A stretch of 41,674 nt of DNA, taken from IMG/VR virus record IMGVR_UViG_3300028388_001281, positions 1 to 41,674 of that record; one strand, written 5' to 3'. The translations under genes and the position numbers were made by a program. This DNA comes from a virus. The number at the start of each line of letters is the position of its first letter. The stretch's first letter is position 1. Below are positions 1 to 41,674 of this stretch, in pieces. Below the pieces are notes generated by a model, which was not told the origin of the DNA, did not search any database, and saw only the letters and a program-made list of their open reading frames with translations.

Positions 1-99
1 TTCTCGCCCGGGCAAGGCGAACTGACGAAGGCAGACCCTTTTCGGCGCGATACTGCGGGTAGATCGTTTTCGCGGTGTTCAGGGTCACGCCCCGGGCGA
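1..99. repeat. Left copy of 99-base exact terminal repeat
   Basis: These 99 bases are identical to 41576-41674. A leftward reading frame runs through both copies without interruption, so the ends join in a circular map of about 41,575 bp. The odd round length (99) suggests an assembler k-mer overlap on a circular or permuted genome rather than a biological direct terminal repeat. Confidence 0.95.
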
Positions 100-445
100 C
101 GCATTCGTCGATCGCCGCCTTGCGCTCGTCGATCCTGCCTTCTTTCCAGAACCGATCGAATATCTCGCGACACACGGCGACCGGCCGCTCTGTCTTGGAC
201 GGGTTCTTGACCTCGCGGGGCGGCACAGGCTCTAGGAGCGGCGTGGACGGCGAAGGCGGCGCGGGCGTCCTGACCGTGCACCCGGTCAGCGCTTCGCGCT
301 GTGCGGGCGTCAGAGCGGCCGGATAAACCCATACAGTCAGGGACCGGTCGGGCTCGATCTCGACGCGGGCCCGAGGCACGTCGCGCTCGATCCGGTTCTT
401 GGCGCGCTCGGCGGCCGCTTGGGATCTATATCGGCGAGGGATCAT
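1..445 (-). CDS. Hypothetical phage protein, N-terminal part (continues across the circular join to 41307)
   Basis: The ATG (complement of 443-445) overlaps the TGA of the upstream sulfotransferase gene in an ATGA arrangement. The frame stays open to base 1 and, when the 99-base terminal overlap is collapsed, continues to a stop at 41307, giving about 237 residues. The start is basic (MIPRRYRSQAAAERAKNR), followed by a proline-rich linker around residues 65-85. The second half is rich in Arg and Lys and has a segment (IDECVARGVTLNTAKTIYPQ) that resembles a helix-turn-helix or other nucleic-acid-binding helix pair. I do not recognise the family. It lies in the leftward replication unit. Confidence 0.8.
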   Translation of the reverse strand, partial: MIPRRYRSQAAAERAKNRIERDVPRARVEIEPDRSLTVWVYPAALTPAQREALTGCTVRTPAPPSPSTPLLEPVPPREVKNPSKTERPVAVCREIFDRFWKEGRIDERKAAIDECVARGVTLNTAKTIYPQYRAEKGLPSSVRLARAR

Positions 446-1020
446 AGCGGGTACTTCCAGATCTCGAAATCGAACCAGAACCGGCGGCGCACTTCGTCGA
501 TCAGTTCGGTGTCGAACCCGCCGGGGCCGTCTCCGATGTAATACCCGACGAAGCCGCCGGATCTCACGCTTGGATTGAGCCGCTCAAGACGGATTTCCCG
601 GCCGAGGTGCTTGTAACTCCACCGGGCGAACTCGGCGTTGAGATCTTCGAACCGGAACACCTTGTTGCACCCGGCGAGCCATTCGATCTGCGGCGTGCGC
701 AGGAAATCGATCTGGCGCGGCCGCGCACCGATCTTCCATTCGTCGTGCAGCACCCAAGTTCGGAAATCTGGCACGTCGGGATCGCGCTCGCGGCGATAGC
801 TCCACGCCGAGACGAGCCGATCGTAGGGGTTGCGCACGACGCCGAGCCGGTGGCGCTTGAGCGGCACGCATCCGGATCGCGGCAGGTAGTGCTTGCTCGG
901 CTTCCCGTCGGGGAATGCGTGCACGTGCTGCGGTGCGGTGAAAGGCAACAGGGCGTCGGTCACGGCCGAGGAAGCCGCTTTCGGGTTCTGCACGAATGAC
1001 CAGTCGTCGCCGAATATCAT
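442..1020 (-). CDS. Sulfotransferase family 2-like protein
   Basis: A 192-residue protein with both cofactor signatures of PAPS-dependent sulfotransferases. The 5'-phosphosulfate loop is NPKAASSA (residues 12-19) and the 3'-phosphate element is VVRNPYDRLVSAW (61-73), with Arg63 and Ser71 in the expected places. In this family the enzyme moves sulfate from PAPS to a hydroxyl or amine of a carbohydrate or small molecule. No signal peptide or membrane segment is seen, so it should act in the cytoplasm. It is coupled by 4-bp ATGA overlaps to both neighbours, so it belongs to the early operon and is not a late insertion. The substrate is unknown; a host surface glycan, a metabolite or a virion component are all possible. 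Confidence 0.8.
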   Translation of the reverse strand: MIFGDDWSFVQNPKAASSAVTDALLPFTAPQHVHAFPDGKPSKHYLPRSGCVPLKRHRLGVVRNPYDRLVSAWSYRRERDPDVPDFRTWVLHDEWKIGARPRQIDFLRTPQIEWLAGCNKVFRFEDLNAEFARWSYKHLGREIRLERLNPSVRSGGFVGYYIGDGPGGFDTELIDEVRRRFWFDFEIWKYPL

Positions 1021-13717: not shown

Positions 13718-14110
13718 ATGCCTAAGCCGCAGACATATCTGGCGCGAGCCGACGAAATAGATCACCTCGTCCTAGAGTGCGGGGCCCATGGGTACTCCTA
13801 CGCCCAGATCGCGGCGTGCATCGGGATCAGCCGGGACCGGCTCAACCTGTGGGCCAAGGAGCACCCGCGCCTCGCCGAGGTGCTGGATCGCGCGCAGACG
13901 CTATCTCAGGCATGGTGGGAGGGCCGCGCCATGGACGGCACGGCGAACCAGCGTATAGGCGCGACCGTCTGGCACAAGAGCATGGCCGCCCGGTTCCCGC
14001 ACGACTACGCCGACCGGCAGGAGGTCGGCACGATCGGGGAAAGCGGCCGCGTGGCGAAGGTCGAGTGGAAGATCGTTGATCCGGCCGGGGAGCCGCAGAG
14101 TGGAGGATAG
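13718..14110 (+). CDS. Putative terminase small subunit
   Basis: A 130-residue protein immediately upstream of, and overlapping, the terminase large subunit. A helix-turn-helix is visible at about residues 25-50 (GYSYAQIAACIGISRDRLNLWA), as in small terminases that recognise packaging sites. A helix-rich middle follows (DRAQTLSQAWWEGRAM), and an extended acidic C terminus may bind TerL. A TTG nine bases upstream is an alternative start; no clear ribosome site was seen for either. Assignment rests on the HTH and position. Confidence 0.75.
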   Translation: MPKPQTYLARADEIDHLVLECGAHGYSYAQIAACIGISRDRLNLWAKEHPRLAEVLDRAQTLSQAWWEGRAMDGTANQRIGATVWHKSMAARFPHDYADRQEVGTIGESGRVAKVEWKIVDPAGEPQSGG

Positions 14111-15398
14111 CGGGTTCGATCCTTTCGGCGATCTCGTAGAGACAAGCGATCTTGTCCCTACGGATCCGCCGGGCATTGGACACAACGGCGGCCCGTCGAT
14201 CGAGATCGAGGTCGCCCGGGTCGTCGCTCCTGCGCTCGCTCCTGCCCGGTACAAAGCCCTGTATGGCGGCCGTGGTGGGACCAAGTCTTACTTTGCGGCC
14301 GACTATACCGTCGCGAAGGCGATGCAGGGCGTGAAATGCCTGTGCGTTCGCGAGGTGCAGATCTCGCTCGACCAATCGTCGAAAGCCCTGATCGAGGAGC
14401 GGATCGACGCGCACGGCCTGCGCGGCGAGTTCCGGATCCTGCGCAGCCATATCGAGCATCCGGCCAGCGGCGGCCGGATCGAGTTCAAGGGCATGCAACA
14501 GTTCAACGCCGCGAACATCAAGTCGCTGCAAGGCTACGGTCTGGCGTGGTGGGAGGAGGCGCACACGGCGTCGCAGTACGCGCTCGATCTCCTGATACCG
14601 ACGATCCGGAAGGAAGGATCCGAGCTAATATTCACATGGAACCCGGAGTTTCCCGACGACCCGGTCGACGCCATGTTCCGGGGGCCGAACGCTATCCGCG
14701 ACGACGTGATCCTTATCGAATGCTCTTCGGAAACGAACCCTTGGCTACCGGCCGTGCTCAAGGCCGAGCGCGACGAGCTATTCCGCCGGGATCCGGAAAA
14801 GGCCGCTTGGGTCTGGGGCGGCGACTATCGCACGATCTCGGACGCGAACGTCCTGAAAGGCCTGTATCGAGCGGAGCGGTTCGAGCCAAAGCCGCATTGG
14901 GACGGGCCTTATCAGGGCCTCGACTTCGGCTTCGCGAACGATCCGACGGCGGCGATCCGGCTCTACACGTTCGGCAAGTCGCTATACATCCACTACGCCG
15001 TCGGGACCGTGCAGCTTGACCTCGACGACACCGAACAATTCATCCTCGAACGTGTGCCCGAATGGGATCGATACGCCGTTCGCTGCGACAACGCGCGGCC
15101 CGAGAGTATTTCGTATCTCAACAAACACGGCTCGGGTCGTTATAGTGCCGCGCCAAAATGGCCGGGGTCGGTCGAGGACGGCATTGCGTGGTATCGGGCC
15201 TTTAACGAGATCGTCGTACACCCGGATCACGCCGCGCCTTTCTTGAAGGAATGCAAGCGCTACTCGTACAAGGTGAACAAGGCGGGCGACGTGCTACCGC
15301 AGATCGAGGACAAGGATAACCATTGGATCGACGCCGGGCGTTATGCCGCGTCGCCCCTGATCAAGGCCACCGGCCTTCCGAACATAAGGAGCCTCTGA
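14100..15398 (+). CDS. terL: Terminase large subunit (Terminase_3 type)
   Basis: A 432-residue protein from GTG at 14100, which overlaps the small-subunit gene; a TTG at 14076 in frame would add eight residues. The ATPase has a modified Walker A GGRGGTKS and Walker B GLAWWEEA, followed by IFTWNPEFP. The C-terminal RNase H-like nuclease shows GLDFGFANDPTA, VRCDNARPESI and EDKDNHWIDAGRYA, with three acidic metal sites. This is the PBSX/SPP1-like class that packages DNA into proheads. Class alone does not settle pac versus cos packaging, but pac-type headful filling would suit a circularly permuted assembly. Confidence 0.95.
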   Translation: MEDSGFDPFGDLVETSDLVPTDPPGIGHNGGPSIEIEVARVVAPALAPARYKALYGGRGGTKSYFAADYTVAKAMQGVKCLCVREVQISLDQSSKALIEERIDAHGLRGEFRILRSHIEHPASGGRIEFKGMQQFNAANIKSLQGYGLAWWEEAHTASQYALDLLIPTIRKEGSELIFTWNPEFPDDPVDAMFRGPNAIRDDVILIECSSETNPWLPAVLKAERDELFRRDPEKAAWVWGGDYRTISDANVLKGLYRAERFEPKPHWDGPYQGLDFGFANDPTAAIRLYTFGKSLYIHYAVGTVQLDLDDTEQFILERVPEWDRYAVRCDNARPESISYLNKHGSGRYSAAPKWPGSVEDGIAWYRAFNEIVVHPDHAAPFLKECKRYSYKVNKAGDVLPQIEDKDNHWIDAGRYAASPLIKATGLPNIRSL

Positions 15399-15401
15399 CC
15401 C

Positions 15402-16655
15402 ATGGCCTTTTGGGACTTCCTGCGCCGAAAGTCGAGCGAAACAAGCCGCCTCCTCGTCACCAACCCGGGACAACCGAAATGGACGCCGCGCGACTATGCC
15501 AAGCTCGCCCGGGAAGGCTACGTCTACAACGTCGTCGCCTATCAGGCGGTTAACCGCGTGGCAGACGCCGTCTCGTCGATCGAGTGGGAGTTCTGGCAAG
15601 GCGACAGCCCTATCGAGGATCCCAATCATCCGCTCAAGGTCTTGTGGAACAAGCCGAACCCGCAGCAATCCGGCGGCGAGTTCATCCGGTCCCTGATCGG
15701 CTATCTCCTCCTCTCGGGCAACGGCTACGTCGAGGCGGCCGAGGGCACGCGAGCGCGGCCTCAGGAACTTTACGCCCTGAGATCCGACCGAATGCGCGTG
15801 ATCCCGAACGCCGAGGGCCTCGTCGATCGGTTCGAGTACAAGCACAACTCGCAGCGGGTTGTATGGGAGGTGGATCCGATCACCGGCAAGGGGCCAATCC
15901 TGCACCTGAAAATGTTCCATCCGCTCGACGACTTCTACGGCATGAGCCCGATCGAGGCCGGGGCGTTCGCCGTCGACCAGAACAACGAGGCGATGAAATG
16001 GATGCAGGCGCTCCTGCAAAACTCGGCCCGGCCGAGCGGCGCGCTCGTGCTCAAGGAGGGCCAGAACCTCGGCGACGAGCAGATCGCCCGGCTGCAAGCC
16101 CAGATCGAGGAGCAATACAGCGGATCCTCGAACGCGGGACGGCCCATGCTCCTCGAAAACGGGCTCGACTGGAAACAGATGGCCCTGAGCCCGAGCGATA
16201 TGGCGATCCTCGATACCAAGTTCTCAAGCGCTCGCGACGTGGCGCTTGCCTTCGGCGTGCCGCCGCAGTTGCTCGGGATCCCGGGCGATAACACGTACTC
16301 GAATTACAAGGAGGCGCGGCTCGCCTTCTACGAGGACACGGTTATCCCGCTCCTGAGCCATATCCTCGGATCCTTCAATCCGTGGTTCGAGGAGCCGTTC
16401 GGTGGCGCGTACCTCATGCCGAACCTCGACAGCATTCCGGCGATCGCCGAGAAGCGCGAGGACAAGTGGGCGATGATCGACAAGAGCCGCGAACTGACGA
16501 TCAACGAACGCAGGGAAGCCAAGGGGTATCCGCCGATCGAGGAGGTCGCCCCGGGCGAGAACGGCAACCGGCTGATCAGTCCCGATCGCGCCGAGGCCGG
16601 GGTAAACACGGAAGAGGGCAAGGCGCTACTGTCGAGGCTCGCCTATGGATCGTGA
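15402..16655 (+). CDS. HK97-family portal protein
   Basis: A 417-residue portal. Diagnostic stretches include FIRSLIGYLLLSGNGYVEA, MSPIEAGAFAVDQNNEA, and FGVPPQLLGIPGDNTYSNYK with the following helix ARLAFYEDTVIPLL. These match HK97 gp3-type portals, dodecameric rings at the packaging vertex. It starts 4 bases after TerL and overlaps the MuF-zincin gene by 11 bp, the standard terminase-portal-MuF order. Confidence 0.95.
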   Translation: MAFWDFLRRKSSETSRLLVTNPGQPKWTPRDYAKLAREGYVYNVVAYQAVNRVADAVSSIEWEFWQGDSPIEDPNHPLKVLWNKPNPQQSGGEFIRSLIGYLLLSGNGYVEAAEGTRARPQELYALRSDRMRVIPNAEGLVDRFEYKHNSQRVVWEVDPITGKGPILHLKMFHPLDDFYGMSPIEAGAFAVDQNNEAMKWMQALLQNSARPSGALVLKEGQNLGDEQIARLQAQIEEQYSGSSNAGRPMLLENGLDWKQMALSPSDMAILDTKFSSARDVALAFGVPPQLLGIPGDNTYSNYKEARLAFYEDTVIPLLSHILGSFNPWFEEPFGGAYLMPNLDSIPAIAEKREDKWAMIDKSRELTINERREAKGYPPIEEVAPGENGNRLISPDRAEAGVNTEEGKALLSRLAYGS

Positions 16656-18471
16656 CGCCGAGGCGCAGGCGGTCAACGAACTGCAAGACAAGATCGCCGA
16701 CCGACACGTCGGCGAGTTGCAGGACGTGCTGACGGAAGCCATGGTGCGCGTCGCAGCCGGGATCCCGACGGGCGGCCGACCGGATCCGCCCGACACGTTC
16801 TTCCCGGCCCTGCAACGCACCATGGCCTCGATCTACCGCGAGATAACGCGCGAGACGGCCGCATCGATGGTCGACCGGTTCAAGAGCGGGTTCTCTTGGC
16901 TCGAAACCAAGGCCGACGAAGACGGCTTCTACGAGCGGCTCTACGAGGAGTACATGAGCCGCCACGGCGGCCAGCGGATCGCGCAGATCAGCGAAGCGAC
17001 CCGGCGGCAGATCGTGCGGATCATCGAACGGGGCCTCAAGGACGGCCTGAGCCTTGACGAGATCGGCGGCGAGCTTATGCAGACTGCCCCGATCCTGTCC
17101 GAGACCCGGGCGCACATAATCTCGCGCACCGAAACGCATTCGGCGAGCATGTTCGCGAGCCTGCAATCGGCCAAGCGCTCGACGATCCCGCTCAATAAGG
17201 AATGGGTCGCCGTCGAGGATCACAGAACGCGCGATTTCGGCGAGGGCGACGGTGAGGTCGATCTGTTCTCTCACAGGACCATGGACGGCGTGCGCGTGCC
17301 TATGGATGATCCTTTCGAGGTTCCGACCCGGTTCGGCACGACCGAGCAACTCATGTACCCCGGCGACCCGGCAGGCTCGGCCGCGAACGTGATCAATTGC
17401 CGGTGCGCGCAGGTTTACGTGACGGTCGAGGACGAGACCGAGGACACGCCGCCGCCGCCTCCTGCCCGGCCGCGCGACCGGTTTCGCTATGAGACGATCG
17501 AGGATCCGAAGGCGAGCCCTCAGGCGATCGCCGACTTCCTGATCGACAACGGGATCGCCGCCCGGGCGGATCTCAAGGGCGTGACGGCCAAGGAGATCGC
17601 CCCGCTCATGCGCTATATGTTGGAGGTGCACGAGCGCTTCGGTCTAGATCCGGTGATGGCGGTCGGCCCGGCTTCGCGGTTCACCAGCCGGGCACGGCGT
17701 ATAAAAGCCAACGCGGCGATCTATCCGACGTTTAGGGACGAGCAAGGCCGCCGGGGCATCTGGCACATGCCGACCTCGTTCGGCCAGCGCAAGCGCTACG
17801 AGACACAGCAGCGATACGCCGAGGAATGGCGGCGCGACGGCAAGTACCTGCGGAAGCGGCAAGCCGTGATCGAACAGAGCACCTTTATCGACGACGAGGT
17901 GCGGGCCCGGGGGCAACGGGCAATTCAAGAGGGCGTGCGGTTCGACTTCACGCTCAACGCGCCAGACGAGCCGGATCTGCACCGGCGCAAAATCATCTAT
18001 CACGAGTATGGGCACGTCGTGCATCTGACGAACACGGCCAATCCGCAAATGTCCGAGGATATCAACGCCGTTCTGCGCCAGATCGGGCACCCGGGGTCGG
18101 GTTGGGGCTACCTTCTCAGCGACTACGCGAATTCGAACGAATACGAACTCGTCGCCGAGAGCTTCTCGCTCTACATGAGCGGGCCGCCGGATCAGTATTG
18201 GCGAATTCATCCTGAGCTACTGGCAGTATTCCGGCGCTACGATCGAGCCGCCGGGCAATCGAGTTACATCCTCATGCCGCCGCCGAAGCCTGCACCGCGA
18301 GACCGCAAGAACGAACTCGGGCCCGAGTATGACGCGGCCGCCCTGATCCGCGAGATCGTGGCGCACCCGGAACGCAGGGAAGAACTCGTCGCCGCCTACA
18401 AGGGCGGGGATCTTGAGGCGATCGAGCCCTATATCGACGAGGCGCTCGCCCTCTTTATCGATCCGACGTAG
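16645..18471 (+). CDS. MuF/SPP1 gp7-like minor head protein fused to a zincin metallopeptidase
   Basis: A 608-residue fusion. Residues about 100-260 form a MuF domain (TRAHIISRTETHSASM, EWVAVEDHRTRD, ending VINCRC at 249-254). MuF proteins sit by the portal and enter the capsid. A proline linker (TPPPPPARPRDR) leads to a domain of about 290-560 with the zinc-protease signature IIYHEYGHVVH: His453, Glu454, His457. The segment NEYELVAESFSLY supplies a likely third ligand, Glu505. The pattern fits gluzincin-like domains in phage-delivered polyvalent or MuF polymorphic toxins. I infer it is packaged and could cut a host or capsid protein; activity is untested. Ordinary MuF proteins are half this length. 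Confidence 0.85.
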   Translation: MDRDAEAQAVNELQDKIADRHVGELQDVLTEAMVRVAAGIPTGGRPDPPDTFFPALQRTMASIYREITRETAASMVDRFKSGFSWLETKADEDGFYERLYEEYMSRHGGQRIAQISEATRRQIVRIIERGLKDGLSLDEIGGELMQTAPILSETRAHIISRTETHSASMFASLQSAKRSTIPLNKEWVAVEDHRTRDFGEGDGEVDLFSHRTMDGVRVPMDDPFEVPTRFGTTEQLMYPGDPAGSAANVINCRCAQVYVTVEDETEDTPPPPPARPRDRFRYETIEDPKASPQAIADFLIDNGIAARADLKGVTAKEIAPLMRYMLEVHERFGLDPVMAVGPASRFTSRARRIKANAAIYPTFRDEQGRRGIWHMPTSFGQRKRYETQQRYAEEWRRDGKYLRKRQAVIEQSTFIDDEVRARGQRAIQEGVRFDFTLNAPDEPDLHRRKIIYHEYGHVVHLTNTANPQMSEDINAVLRQIGHPGSGWGYLLSDYANSNEYELVAESFSLYMSGPPDQYWRIHPELLAVFRRYDRAAGQSSYILMPPPKPAPRDRKNELGPEYDAAALIREIVAHPERREELVAAYKGGDLEAIEPYIDEALALFIDPT

Positions 18472-18492: not shown

Positions 18493-18498
18493 TAAATG

Positions 18499-18529
18499 TT
18501 GCGCAATCTGGCGATAGAAACCATATACT
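18499..18529 (+). promoter_or_regulatory. Possible promoter for protease and capsid genes
   Basis: TATACT (18524-18529) is a good -10. TTGCGC (18499-18504) is an imperfect -35 with a long 19-base spacer. It lies in the only untranslated gap between the MuF-zincin gene and the capsid module, where extra capsid transcription would be useful. Weak prediction. Confidence 0.35.
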
Positions 18530-18552
18530 TAGCGAGCGAGGATACCCGGGTC

Positions 18553-19233
18553 ATGACGCTTCAACACAAGACCCTAGCGCTTGAAGTCAAGGAGACGACC
18601 GGCGACGGCGGGTTCGAAGGTTACGCTTCGACGATGGACCTCGATCGAGGTGGCGACGTGGTCGAGATGGGCGCATTCGAGCGCTCGCTCGCACAGCACA
18701 AAGCCAAGGGCACCAAGCCGAAAATGCTCTGGAACCATAACCCCGACAAGGTTGTCGGCGTCTGGGACGAGTTTCGGCAGGACGAGAAAGGCCTCTACGT
18801 CAAAGGCCGGTGCGTCAAGGAGACGACCCTCGGCCGGGACACTTACGAACTCATGCGGGCAGGCGCGATCGACAGCATGTCGATCGGGTACATGACCCGG
18901 GAAGCCGAGTTCGACGCCGACCAGAGCGGCACGCGCCGCCTCAAGGAGGTTGATCTCTGGGAGGTATCGCTCGTGACCTTCCCCATGAACGAGGAGGCTC
19001 GCGTTACCGCCGTGAAGCGGGTCGAGAGCGTCCGAGACGTTGAGCGCTTACTCCGCGAAGGGGGAGTGCCCAACGAATTCGCCAAGCTCGTGGCCCTGCA
19101 CGGCTACGAGGAGGCAAAAGCACGGATCGACGGACGGCGCGAGGCTGACGGCGACGACGTGGTGAACCGGGACGGGCTCGCCCGTCTCATGGAAACCCTA
19201 CAGGCGAGAAAGGACATTTCCTATGCCTCCTAA
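18553..19233 (+). CDS. HK97-type prohead protease (peptidase S78)
   Basis: A 226-residue protease. After MTLQHKTLALEVKE comes FEGYASTMDLDRGGDVV, then LWNHNPDKVVGVW with His62, IDSMSIGY with Ser110 (Ser108 also close), and LWEVSLVTFPMN with the supporting Glu. This is the catalytic arrangement of S78 prohead proteases, which remove the scaffold delta-domain of the major capsid protein. The start at 18553 is preferred over an upstream ATG at 18496 because GAGG lies just before it and the extra N terminus looks non-coding. Confidence 0.93.
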   Translation: MTLQHKTLALEVKETTGDGGFEGYASTMDLDRGGDVVEMGAFERSLAQHKAKGTKPKMLWNHNPDKVVGVWDEFRQDEKGLYVKGRCVKETTLGRDTYELMRAGAIDSMSIGYMTREAEFDADQSGTRRLKEVDLWEVSLVTFPMNEEARVTAVKRVESVRDVERLLREGGVPNEFAKLVALHGYEEAKARIDGRREADGDDVVNRDGLARLMETLQARKDISYAS

Positions 19234-20566
19234 GGACTTCACGCTCGACGACGTGACCAAGGCCGTCGAAGACGGCAACCGCGCGTTCGAAGAGTTCAAG
19301 CAGAAGAACGACGAACGGCTCAAGGAGCTTGAGAGCAAGGGCCTTGACGACGTTGTCCGCAAGGACGAACTCGACAAGATCAACGCCTCGATCGAAGAGG
19401 CGCAGCGGAAAAACGACGAGTTCGCCGCACGCCTCAAGCGACAGGCTCTTTATGGCAAGAACGCCGACGAAGGCGCGACGGCCGAAGAGCGCGAAGAGAA
19501 GGCGTTCAAGTGGTGGGCTGCGCAACAGGGCCTCAAGGGCCGCCGCGTGACCCGTGACGACTTCGACGATAACGCTCAGGAAGCGGTCGCGAACTACAAG
19601 GCGGCATTCGACAGCTACATGCGCCACAACGGCGACGAGCGCAGCATGTCGCCCGAAGATCTTAAGGCTCTGAGCGTGGGCTCGGATCCCGACGGCGGCT
19701 ACGTCGTCGACGCCGACACCGGCGGCCGGATCGTGTCGCGGATCTTCGAAACCTCGCCCATGCGGCAGTTCGCGGCGATCCAGACGATCGGCACGGACGC
19801 GCTGGAAGGCCTGCACGACAGCGACGAGGCCGCGTTCGGTTGGGTCGGCGAGGAAGGCGCACGGTCGGAGACGACCACGCCGAAGCTCGAAAAGTGGCGC
19901 ATTCCGGTTCACGAAATGTACGCGAAACCGGCTGCAACGCAGAAGCTCCTCGACGATGCTGCGATAAACATGGAGGCATGGCTGCAATCGAAGGTAACGG
20001 ATCGGTTCGCCCGGGCCGAAAATACCGCCTTCGTGACCGGCAACGGTGTCGACCGGCCGCGTGGCTTCACCACGTACCCCGATCGTGCATCGGCTGACGT
20101 GTTCGAGATCGGCGCGATCGAGCGCTTCACGAGCGGCGCAAACGGCGCGTTTGTCGCGGCACCGAACGGCGGTGACGTTCTGATCGACGCCCTCTACGGC
20201 CTCAAGGCTCAGTACCGGGCGAATGCCGCGTGGTTCATGAACCGCAAGGTGGCCGCCGAGGTTCGCCAACTCAAGGACAGCGACGGGGCCTACCTGTGGG
20301 TTCCCGGGATCGCGGCGGGCCAGCCTGCCTCGCTCCTCGGCTATCCGACGGCCTCGTTCGAGGACATGGCGGATCTTTCCACGGGCTCGCTTTCGATCGC
20401 CGTCGGCGACATGCGCGAGGCCTACCAGATCGTCGACCGTATCGGCGTGCGCGTCCTGCGCGACCCGTACTCGAATAAGCCTTATGTCGAGTTCTACTCG
20501 ACGAAGCGCACCGGCGGCGACGTGGTGAACTTCGAAGCGCTCAAGCTTATCGAGTTCTCGTCCTAA
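19223..20566 (+). CDS. Major capsid protein (HK97 fold, with N-terminal scaffold domain)
   Basis: A 447-residue capsid protein. Residues 1-75 are charged and helical (EEFKQKNDERLKELESKG), the cleavable delta scaffold. The HK97-fold body starts around LSVGSDPDGGYVV, followed by the N-arm and E-loop region (IQTIGTDALEGLHDSDEAAFG), spine helix and P/A domains through YLWVPGI and GDMREAYQIVDR. It overlaps the protease gene by 11 bp; AAAGGA precedes the ATG. A strong hairpin follows the stop. Confidence 0.95.
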   Translation: MPPKDFTLDDVTKAVEDGNRAFEEFKQKNDERLKELESKGLDDVVRKDELDKINASIEEAQRKNDEFAARLKRQALYGKNADEGATAEEREEKAFKWWAAQQGLKGRRVTRDDFDDNAQEAVANYKAAFDSYMRHNGDERSMSPEDLKALSVGSDPDGGYVVDADTGGRIVSRIFETSPMRQFAAIQTIGTDALEGLHDSDEAAFGWVGEEGARSETTTPKLEKWRIPVHEMYAKPAATQKLLDDAAINMEAWLQSKVTDRFARAENTAFVTGNGVDRPRGFTTYPDRASADVFEIGAIERFTSGANGAFVAAPNGGDVLIDALYGLKAQYRANAAWFMNRKVAAEVRQLKDSDGAYLWVPGIAAGQPASLLGYPTASFEDMADLSTGSLSIAVGDMREAYQIVDRIGVRVLRDPYSNKPYVEFYSTKRTGGDVVNFEALKLIEFSS

Positions 20567-20631: not shown

Positions 20632-21048
20632 ATGTATCGCGATCTCAACTCTAACGTGGCGGCGTTCGAAAGCATCCGCCCGCAAGTGGCAACCGGCGGC
20701 GTTGACGGCGAAACCGTCGATCTCCGGGGCTATGACAGCGCCGTGATCGTCGTCTCGATCGGTGCAATCACCGGCACGGGCGGCGACGGCACCGTGACCC
20801 TTGAGGAGAGCGACGACGGCACCGCGTGGACCGACGTTGCCGACGCCGATATCCTCGGGTCCGAGCCGACCCTCGCCGCGAACAACGACTATCAGTTCGG
20901 ATACATCGGCGAGGCGCGCTACGTGCGGGCCGTGCTCGATATCGGCACCGAGACGAACATTGCCGCCTCGGCCATGGTCGTCGCCGGTCACGCGCACCGC
21001 GCGCCGACCGACGAGAGCGGCACACAGCCGACTTACACCGGCACCTAA
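20632..21048 (+). CDS. Probable head decoration or head-associated structural protein
   Basis: A 138-residue, beta-rich protein just after the capsid gene. It carries VDLRGYDSAVIVVSIG, LEESDDGTAWTDVADADI, and GEARYVRAVLDIG, a pattern common in hypothetical proteins next to capsid genes of marine and alphaproteobacterial phages. The strand-loop-strand layout is compatible with a decoration protein. Assignment is from position and pattern. An AGGAGG ribosome site precedes the ATG. Confidence 0.65.
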   Translation: MYRDLNSNVAAFESIRPQVATGGVDGETVDLRGYDSAVIVVSIGAITGTGGDGTVTLEESDDGTAWTDVADADILGSEPTLAANNDYQFGYIGEARYVRAVLDIGTETNIAASAMVVAGHAHRAPTDESGTQPTYTGT

Positions 21049-40645: not shown

Positions 40646-40866
40646 AGGTGTCAAGCACCTATGCCGAAATCTGGTACGATCGCGACCAGTTCGAGTCGTG
40701 GTTCGTCTCTTTCTTCGAACCCGACGGCACGCCGAGCGATCGCGAGAGCGAGCCATACGCCTACAAGAACGACGCCGCGCGCAGAGCCGCACGGTTGAAG
40801 GCCGACGGCGAGATCTGTCGATACGCAGTTTTCACGAGATCCGGCGAACTGGAACGGGTCAGGTGA
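40642..40866 (+). CDS. Small hypothetical protein
   Basis: A 74-residue protein (SSTYAEIWYDRDQFESWFVS; NDAARRAARLKADGEICRYA). Its last bases overlap the end of the convergent leftward gene by 8 bp. No family recognised. Confidence 0.7.
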   Translation: MKVSSTYAEIWYDRDQFESWFVSFFEPDGTPSDRESEPYAYKNDAARRAARLKADGEICRYAVFTRSGELERVR

Positions 40867-41305
40867 GATCGTAGAAGAACTCTGATCGCCCTAGTCGCAC
40901 CGTGGCTAGGGCGATTTTCGCGTGCCGGGGATCCTCCTGCGGCGCGTTCCATTTCTCCCGGGCGAGCCAACCCTCGACGTGGCGGCCGATGTAGAAGCTC
41001 AGTTGCGGGCCGCTCGTGCCGTGGTCGAACAGGACCGGATCGGCCGCGCCGATCCGCTTGAGCTTGACCAGATCGTCGGCGTGCGGATCTTCGTTGTCGA
41101 TCAGGATCTTGCCGTCGAACAGATCACGCATCATGTCGTCGAGCCGACCGAGGGCCTCCTCGGGCACGATCAAGCCGCGCTCGTCCATTACCTCGGCCTC
41201 GAAATCGATCTCGATCTCGACCTCCCGGCCGACAAGAACACTTCGCGGGCCGTCGCGGCGCATGACGGCCGACATACGGGGCGAGCGATATCGATGATAG
41301 AGCAT
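40859..41305 (-). CDS. Possible degenerate pterin-synthase-like (T-fold) protein
   Basis: A 148-residue protein with the outline of a 6-pyruvoyl-tetrahydropterin synthase/QueD subunit. It shows VEIEIDFEAEVMDERGLIV, then LDDMMRDLFDGKILIDNEDP, and FYIGRHVEGWLAREKW. The usual catalytic and zinc His residues (HGHNY) appear as VGREV. So if this is the fold, it has lost normal metal binding. QueD-like proteins act in queuosine or 7-deazaguanine synthesis. It is the last gene of the leftward operon. Alternative: an unrelated beta protein. Confidence 0.45.
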   Translation of the reverse strand: MLYHRYRSPRMSAVMRRDGPRSVLVGREVEIEIDFEAEVMDERGLIVPEEALGRLDDMMRDLFDGKILIDNEDPHADDLVKLKRIGAADPVLFDHGTSGPQLSFYIGRHVEGWLAREKWNAPQEDPRHAKIALATVRLGRSEFFYDLT

Positions 41306-41306
41306 G

Positions 41307-41674
41307 TCAACCTCTTTTGTGATGTTGCCCGGGATCGGGCAGGGCGTGGAACTTGCGCCATTTCGGGAAAGCGATCTTGATCGTGTCCATGCCTATGTTC
41401 GGCAGTCGAGCCCGAACCTCGCCGCGCTTCGGCACGCGGCCGAGCTTGCGGTGCAGAACGTCGGCCATGTTCCAGACTTCGGCCGCCTTGGTGCCGGGCA
41501 TGGGTTCCGACACGCCGTTACAGACGCGCAAGCCCTGCGGACGGCCGTTAGGGGTCAGGTCGACCCGGGAACGGGTTCTCGCCCGGGCAAGGCGAACTGA
41601 CGAAGGCAGACCCTTTTCGGCGCGATACTGCGGGTAGATCGTTTTCGCGGTGTTCAGGGTCACGCCCCGGGCGA
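41307..41674 (-). CDS. Hypothetical phage protein, C-terminal part (same gene as 1-445)
   Basis: The 3' end of the join-spanning gene. It continues in frame from base 1 when the repeat is collapsed. The region has RTRSRVDLTPNGRPQGLRV and a C-terminal PKRGEVRARLPNIGMDTIK, again basic and likely nucleic-acid binding. The stop at 41307 is one base from the start of the next leftward gene. Confidence 0.8.
   Translation of the reverse strand, partial: ARGVTLNTAKTIYPQYRAEKGLPSSVRLARARTRSRVDLTPNGRPQGLRVCNGVSEPMPGTKAAEVWNMADVLHRKLGRVPKRGEVRARLPNIGMDTIKIAFPKWRKFHALPDPGQHHKRG
41576..41674. repeat. Right copy of 99-base exact terminal repeat
   Basis: Identical to 1-99. It should be counted once in a circular map; the true genome is then about 41,575 bp. 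Confidence 0.95.

What the first reader, a model, noticed from the sequence alone, without database searches (positions are those of the whole stretch)
16645..18471. MuF head protein fused to an HEYGH zincin: candidate virion-delivered protease effector
The sequence directly shows a MuF-type region (ending VINCRC, residues 249-254), a proline linker, and then HEYGH (453-457) with NEYELVAESF (Glu505) downstream. Zincin families use HExxH plus a later Glu. MuF proteins are packaged near the portal, and fusions to toxin or peptidase domains are known as MuF polymorphic toxins and polyvalent proteins, but a zincin in a seemingly lytic phage of this type is unusual. Inference: the protease enters the host with the DNA and cuts a defence or regulatory protein, or matures the head. 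No immunity gene was recognised beside it.
Basis: partly seen in the sequence, partly recalled or inferred. Interest (0 to 1): 0.88.

Follow-up and report, generated by a model that had tools for sequence, protein, structure and literature searches.

The report
Phage head protein carrying a protease
A probably virulent phage makes a portal-side head protein with a zinc protease attached and a small acidic helper fused to its end; dozens of related phages carry the same protease with the helper as a separate gene, which suggests a protease that is packed into the virion and held in check until infection.

Summary
ORF 16645-18471 encodes 608 aa: a Phage_Mu_F head protein (Pfam E=4.5e-11), a variable linker, then HEYGH (453-457). 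No profile library recognises the C-terminal part alone. Relatives establish it as a real domain: 31 aligned homologues keep H453, E454, G456, H457, Y494, E501 and E505 without exception, and AlphaFold2 folds it confidently (pLDDT 88, pTM 0.87). Its profile resembles lethal-factor-like and Mx1 zincins. By Pro-Pro-endopeptidase spacing the third zinc ligand is probably Glu501, not Glu505.

Among MuF proteins recovered from viral contigs, the C-terminus is either absent or a zincin: all 19 complete long extensions carry HExGH. Two zincin classes and 'no extension' alternate on related MuF domains (70-90% identity).

The main new result concerns a partner. 35 of 36 fusion genes overlap or abut a small ORF (57-101 aa, mostly acidic), against 4 of 57 short MuF genes. 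The window has no such ORF because a homologue is fused to its own C-terminus (residues 554-608). So 'no immunity gene' needs revision. No lysogeny gene was found, although MuF toxins were reported only in temperate phages.

Best reading: a virion-delivered protease acting on host proteins, with a cognate inhibitor-like partner. Delivery, target and inhibition are inferred.

The parts
16645..18471 (+). MuF-zincin-partner fusion protein, 608 aa
   Evidence: start overlaps the portal stop by 11 bases
16645..17424 (+). MuF head-morphogenesis region, residues 1-260 (Pfam hit residues 123-256)
   Evidence: Phage_Mu_F E=4.5e-11; phrog_2468 head morphogenesis E=9e-42
17425..17499 (+). Variable proline-rich linker, residues 261-285
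   Evidence: pN/pS 0.91 against L002, nearly neutral; proline runs not conserved in the family
17500..18279 (+). Class A zincin domain, residues about 286-545
   Evidence: A7 alignment of 31 sequences; AlphaFold2 pLDDT 88.2, pTM 0.87; profile matches to Mx1-like and lethal-factor-like zincins
18001..18015 (+). HEYGH zinc-binding motif, residues 453-457, on a predicted helix (443-462)
   Evidence: invariant H, E, G, H in 31 sequences; helix in the model
18124..18126 (+). Tyr494, predicted oxyanion-hole tyrosine
   Evidence: invariant; equivalent position in PPEP-3 is Tyr190
18145..18147 (+). Glu501, predicted third zinc ligand (Tyr+7)
   Evidence: invariant; PPEP-3 Tyr190 and ligand Glu197 are also seven apart; aligned with the corresponding Glu of lethal factor
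18157..18159 (+).
   Evidence: invariant
18274..18276 (+). In-frame ATG (Met544) 65 codons before the stop; possible internal start or relic of the partner's own start
   Evidence: all six tail-bearing members have an in-frame ATG 60-68 codons before the stop; ribosome-site score weak in the window
18304..18468 (+). Fused acidic partner module, residues 554-608
   Evidence: profile of the six tails finds free downstream ORFs at E=2e-12 to 2e-9, best decoy 0.13; pI 4.4, pN/pS 0.33
15402..16655 (+). Portal protein (context)
   Evidence: Phage_portal E=5.6e-78
18496..19233 (+). S78 prohead protease (context)
   Evidence: Peptidase_S78 E=7.8e-33
19223..20566 (+). Major capsid protein (context)
   Evidence: Phage_capsid E=6.1e-78
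14076..15398 (+). Terminase large subunit (context)
   Evidence: Terminase_3 E=1e-28

Best explanation
The gene makes a portal-proximal minor head protein (MuF) that carries an active lethal-factor/PPEP-like zinc endopeptidase on its C-terminus. The protease is packaged with the MuF domain and enters the cell with the DNA, where it cuts one or more host proteins (defence or regulatory) at the start of infection. While virions are being built late in infection, a small acidic helical partner, here fused to the C-terminus (residues 554-608) and in most relatives encoded by an overlapping downstream ORF, binds the protease and keeps it inactive or correctly folded. Shown: the architecture, the conserved active-site signature, the predicted fold, modular gain, loss and exchange of the protease, and the partner's linkage and homology. 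Inferred: packaging, ejection, host target, and inhibition by the partner.
For: MuF domain in portal/MuF/S78/capsid synteny. H, E, G, H, Y, E, E invariant in 31 sequences and the core under the strongest constraint (pN/pS 0.21). Confident fold. Profile matches to zincins in PDB (51, 59) and Pfam. All 19 complete long extensions found on MuF homologues have HExGH, none of the short ones does. Module present, absent or of the other class on MuF domains 70-90% identical. The same zincin is attached to several MuF sub-types, including cultured pelagiphages HTVC026P, Aegir and Kolga. Partner ORF at 35/36 fusions versus 4/57 short MuF genes; the five tail-bearing fusions tested have none; tail and ORF homologous; partner mostly acidic (pI about 4.1-4.6) while the zincin is basic (pI 8.7). 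Literature: MuF proteins sit at the portal and are proposed to deliver enzymes (PMC5512222, PMC5576092), and 80alpha gp44 of this family is an ejection protein (PMC12323379).
Against: No virion proteomics, activity or toxicity data. The partner could be a chaperone or packaging adaptor instead of an inhibitor, and an inhibitor fused in cis would have to be released or displaced. The fold match to PDB is weak (best Foldseek E=0.046, low TM-score). The partner's ORF is too short for a family assignment (104). No host target can be named.
Confidence: 0.5

Rival explanations
1. Self-processing or virion-maturation protease: the zincin cuts its own MuF linker or internal head proteins before or during ejection, as proposed for zincins in polyvalent proteins such as phage P1 DdrB.
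For: Polyvalent-protein zincins are thought to autoprocess (PMC5512222). The linker is fast-evolving and proline-rich in the window and in the L095-L110 group, and PPEP-like zincins cut Pro-Pro bonds.
Against: A dedicated S78 prohead protease lies directly downstream in the window and is recognised downstream in many other fusion loci; close relatives with short MuF live without the zincin; the proline runs are absent in other members such as L016 and L097, so no conserved cut site is visible.
Confidence: 0.22
2. MuF polymorphic toxin proper: a toxin with immunity protein used to poison cells that receive the virion or rival bacteria.
For: Modular swapping of C-terminal domains and a small downstream ORF are the hallmarks reported for MuF toxins (89.4% versus 25.5% for short MuF, PMC5576092; here 35/36 versus 4/57).
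Against: MuF toxins were found only in temperate phages (PMC5576092); this complete genome has no tyrosine or serine recombinase, rve transposase, HTH_3 repressor or ParA hit. Only zincins, not nucleases or ADP-ribosyltransferases, appear on these MuF proteins.
Confidence: 0.12
3. Entry peptidase: the zincin acts on envelope or peptidoglycan-associated proteins to open the path for DNA.
For: Some virion-packaged enzymes are proposed to do this (PMC5512222); the profile also matches a lipoprotein zincin (9urd).
Against: MuF proteins sit inside the head at the portal; no cell-wall-binding domain was recognised; sister phages lack the domain.
Confidence: 0.08
4. The HExxH is a chance motif in a structural extension with no enzymatic role.
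For: No Pfam, PHROG or NCBIfam hit for the window's extension on its own.
Against: Seven invariant catalytic-type residues in 31 divergent sequences, a chance rate of 0.04% for the combined motif, and significant profile matches to zincins.
Confidence: 0.02

Closest known systems
MuF polymorphic toxins (Jamet et al. 2017, PMC5576092)
   Same: N-terminal MuF domain, exchangeable C-terminal enzyme (20% are metallopeptidases), small ORF directly downstream
   Different: Reported only in temperate phages, mainly of Firmicutes, with mostly nuclease domains; here no lysogeny genes, only zincins, and in the window the small partner is fused in cis
Zincin-like MPTase domains of polyvalent proteins (Iyer et al. 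2017, PMC5512222), including phage N4 virion RNA polymerase and P1 DdrB
   Same: HExxH plus later Glu zincin proposed to be delivered with phage DNA; the paper also linked such a domain to lethal factor by profile search
   Different: Single-enzyme MuF fusion of about 600 aa, not a giant multidomain protein; comes with a dedicated small partner; Pfam MPTase-PolyVal is hit only weakly and only by one class B member
Lethal-factor-like (ATLF, PF07737) and Pro-Pro endopeptidase (PPEP) zincins
   Same: HExxH, and Tyr seven residues before the third ligand Glu; lethal factor also has the second Glu four residues on (alignment)
   Different: Below Pfam's cut-off in the members whose scores were shown; weak overall fold match; fused to a phage head protein
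Short MuF proteins of Marinomonas phage P12026, Pseudoalteromonas phage Pq0 and Flavobacterium phage 11b
   Same: Same MuF domain in the same portal/MuF/prohead protease order
   Different: About 255 aa, no zincin and, in P12026 and Pq0, no small partner ORF
Pelagibacter phage HTVC026P gp30-gp31 and Aegir gp15-gp16
   Same: Head protein of about 610-630 aa with the same zincin signature, followed by an overlapping small ORF
   Different: Partner is a separate gene; the HTVC026P N-terminal part is not scored as Phage_Mu_F; Aegir reads HEFAH

Membership tests
MuF superfamily (PF04233) | Phage_Mu_F profile above gathering score | tested here: met
   43.9 bits versus cut-off 29.6
MuF superfamily (PF04233) | Gene beside the portal in the head module | tested here: met
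   portal 15402-16655, overlap 11 bases
MuF polymorphic toxin | MuF plus exchangeable C-terminal enzymatic domain | tested here: met
   class A, class B and short forms alternate on related MuF domains
MuF polymorphic toxin | Small ORF (candidate immunity) directly downstream | tested here: inconclusive
   met in 35/36 relatives; in the window the homologous module is fused instead; immunity itself untested
MuF polymorphic toxin | Carried by a temperate phage or prophage | tested here: not met
   no integrase, resolvase, rve, HTH_3 or ParA in a genome with a 99-bp terminal repeat
MuF polymorphic toxin | Toxic activity on bacteria | not testable with these tools
   needs expression experiments
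ATLF / M34-like zincin | HExxH with Tyr at -7 from third-ligand Glu | tested here: met
   H453-H457, Y494, E501; invariant in 31 sequences, with exact +7 spacing in 29 (two have an 8-residue insertion); PPEP-3 spacing from PMC12828418
ATLF / M34-like zincin | Pfam ATLF gathering score (27.4 bits) | tested here: not met
   no hit for the window; best relative with bits shown 24.7; 5 of 8 core fragments match at E up to 5, best 1e-6
ATLF / M34-like zincin | Same fold | tested here: inconclusive
   top PDB Foldseek hits are all lethal factor, but E=0.046 and TM 0.18
Head maturation protease | Sole or required prohead protease of the phage | tested here: not met
   S78 protease adjacent; relatives with short MuF

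The most novel reading that the evidence does not exclude
Phages without lysogeny genes carry a virion-packaged protease together with a dedicated small inhibitor that is encoded either as an overlapping gene or as a C-terminal cis-module, possibly also made alone from an internal start. The inhibitor would be lost or displaced on ejection, so that the protease acts only in the newly infected cell, a built-in delivery switch.
Probability: 0.33. Interest if true: 0.82.

Novelty: new variant of a known kind. Interest (0 to 1): 0.63.

Why it matters
Which host proteins phages cleave with packaged proteases is largely unknown. This gives a defined, recurrent family: dozens of environmental loci plus three cultured pelagiphages. 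It has clear catalytic residues and a small cognate partner to test, and it extends MuF enzyme fusions beyond the temperate phages to which they were said to be restricted.

Tried and rejected
AlphaFold2 on the full protein with only two sequences failed (pLDDT 36); the deeper 31-sequence alignment of the extension worked. Single-sequence searches of the extension against Pfam, PHROGs, NCBIfam and 50,697 phage records, and of the whole protein against PDB, found nothing for the extension. Two scans of bacterial and archaeal genomes found no confirmed relative; confirmation there was against the window sequence only, so distant prophage copies would be missed. Linker autocleavage at Pro-Pro bonds was considered: proline runs are not conserved, so it is kept only as part of a rival. 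Head maturation was rejected as the main role because of the adjacent S78 protease. Class A and class B zincins align only over 19 residues around HEyGH, so common ancestry beyond the motif is not shown. An internal start for the partner was examined: an in-frame ATG occurs in all six tail-bearing members, but the window's ribosome-site score is at background (-2.5 against a mean of -3.2), so it may be only a relic of the partner's former start codon. Coordinates of the AlphaFold model were not available, so distances between His453, His457, Glu501 and Glu505 were not measured.

Full report
Observation. Pfam assigns Phage_Mu_F to residues 123-256 above its cut-off, and PHROGs assign head morphogenesis. 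The gene overlaps the portal stop and is followed after 24 bases by an S78 prohead protease and the capsid gene. The extension from residue 285 has no hit in Pfam, PHROGs, NCBIfam or 50,697 phage genomes on its own.

Is it a real domain? One relative at 74% identity (L002) keeps everything. A scan of viral contigs with a MuF alignment gave 80 loci. Their MuF proteins are bimodal: either they stop within about 25 residues of the NCRC motif, or they run on for 273-422 residues, and all 19 complete long extensions carry HE[YFML]GH while no short one does (motif offsets printed are shifted, corrected in 41). A second scan with the extension itself brought 34 loci, including re-finds of L002, L010, L011, L016, L017 and L021. 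In an alignment of 31 sequences H453, E454, G456, H457, Y494, E501 and E505 are invariant and H460 nearly so. The zincin core is the most constrained part between the window and L002 (pN/pS 0.21), while the linker is nearly neutral (0.91). Shuffling gives HExxH in 1.8% and the full signature in 0.04%.

What kind of domain? AlphaFold2 on that alignment gives pLDDT 88.2 and pTM 0.87, with HEYGH on one helix (443-462) and E501/E505 on a later one (499-512). Profile searches reach a zinc metallohydrolase lipoprotein (9urd, E=2.9e-6) and lethal-factor entries (E=1e-4 to 1e-2), with Pro-Pro endopeptidases as weak hits. Of eight core fragments, five match Pfam ATLF and five Peptidase_Mx1. Foldseek's best PDB matches are all lethal factor but weak (E=0.046); its best viral match is a 611-residue protein (E=6.8e-6). 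In PPEP-3 the oxyanion-hole Tyr190 lies seven residues before the third ligand Glu197 (PMC12828418). The window's Tyr494 and Glu501 have the same spacing, so Glu501 is the likelier ligand; Glu505 is the second conserved glutamate. L093 and L094 have an 8-residue insertion between Tyr and Glu. The distances themselves were not measured.

A modular extension. On a tree of MuF domains (188 columns, quick method) the three states (class A zincin, class B zincin, none) need at least 14 changes, against 37 when shuffled. Examples: L037 (class A) and L039 (short) share 90% of the MuF domain; L055 (class B) and L082 (class A) share 83% but 26% in the extension; the window and L013 (class B) share 70% but 28% in the extension. 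Class B has its own signature and aligns with class A only over 19 residues around HEyGH. The class A zincin is also attached to other MuF sub-types and occurs in cultured Pelagibacter phages HTVC026P (gp30), Aegir (gp15) and Kolga (gp59).

A coupled partner. Of 36 fusion genes without the window's tail, 35 have an ORF of 57-101 aa whose start lies between -25 and +11 of the fusion's stop. Only 4 of 57 short MuF genes have one in the tested range (Fisher p=6e-20; the sequences are not independent). In HTVC026P and Aegir these ORFs are annotated genes (gp31, gp16). The five testable fusions of the window's own clade have no such ORF but carry an extra tail, in the window residues 554-608. A profile of the six tails finds the free ORFs of L092 and the L095-L110 group at E=2e-12 to 2e-9, with the best shuffled decoy at 0.13. 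In the reverse search, with a profile of the L095-L110 ORFs, the tails of L094, L011, L093 and L002 score at E=2e-10 to 3e-4 but the window's own tail only at 0.086, no better than decoys, so the window is joined through its close relatives. Partners are mostly acidic (pI about 4.1-4.6), and the zincin is basic (pI 8.7); free partners in the L095-L110 group are under purifying selection (pN/pS 0.25). All six tail-bearing members have an in-frame ATG 60-68 codons before the stop, the size of a free partner, but only some have a good ribosome site and the window does not. Class B fusions have small ORFs too, of a different sequence type.

Lifestyle. The record's ends repeat 99 bases, so the genome is probably complete. 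It encodes DNA polymerase A, an Enc34-type single-strand-binding protein, a PD-(D/E)XK/DUF2800 protein and helicases. No tyrosine or serine recombinase, rve transposase, HTH_3 repressor or ParA was found in it or in L002's record. HTVC026P does have an HTH_3 protein. Absence of these families makes a virulent lifestyle likely but does not prove it.

Mechanism. Shown: architecture, catalytic signature, fold prediction, modular exchange, partner linkage and homology. Inferred: MuF proteins sit at the portal and some are ejected (PMC5512222; 80alpha gp44 in PMC12323379), so the zincin probably enters the cell with the DNA. Because the domain is dispensable among sister phages, it more likely serves a host-dependent function such as counter-defence or host takeover than assembly. 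The partner's tight linkage and acidity fit an inhibitor or immunity role, but a folding or packaging helper would look the same.

Comparison. MuF fusions with metallopeptidases are known (20% of 191 MuF toxins), and 89.4% of MuF toxin genes have a small downstream ORF (PMC5576092). That study found no MuF toxin in a virulent phage. Zincins are the commonest domain of polyvalent proteins (PMC5512222). The present case is therefore a new variant: a distinct zincin family, not recognised by the profile libraries searched here, on MuF proteins of phages lacking lysogeny genes, with a partner that can be fused in cis. It is not filed as a MuF polymorphic toxin because the temperate-phage criterion was tested and not met, nor as ATLF because the Pfam cut-off was not met; it probably works like both.

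Noticed in passing
window 1-99 and 41576-41674: The two ends share a 99-base direct repeat, so the record is probably a complete, circularly permuted genome.
   Followed up: partly
window 40859-41305 (-): QueD-like 6-pyruvoyl-tetrahydropterin synthase (PHROG 2389, E=9e-6), possibly part of deazaguanine DNA modification.
   Followed up: no
window 442-1020 (-): Sulfotransferase-like protein (Sulfotransfer_2, E=5e-5), unusual in a phage.
   Followed up: no
L012:4189-5280 and A8 members: A second zincin family (class B: HEyGHxxD ... GHGxxYY ... E.FAN) on MuF extensions with its own small downstream ORFs, several of which end in a similar P-x-x-V motif; L012 and L013 have Gln where the other members have Glu.
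   Followed up: partly
L119:2250-4151: Pelagibacter phage Aegir gp15 has HEFAH where nearly all relatives have HExGH.
   Followed up: no
window 20632-21048: Conserved protein of unknown function (phrog_5707, E=9e-30) just after the capsid gene, with a faint galactose-binding-domain match, possibly a capsid decoration protein.
   Followed up: no
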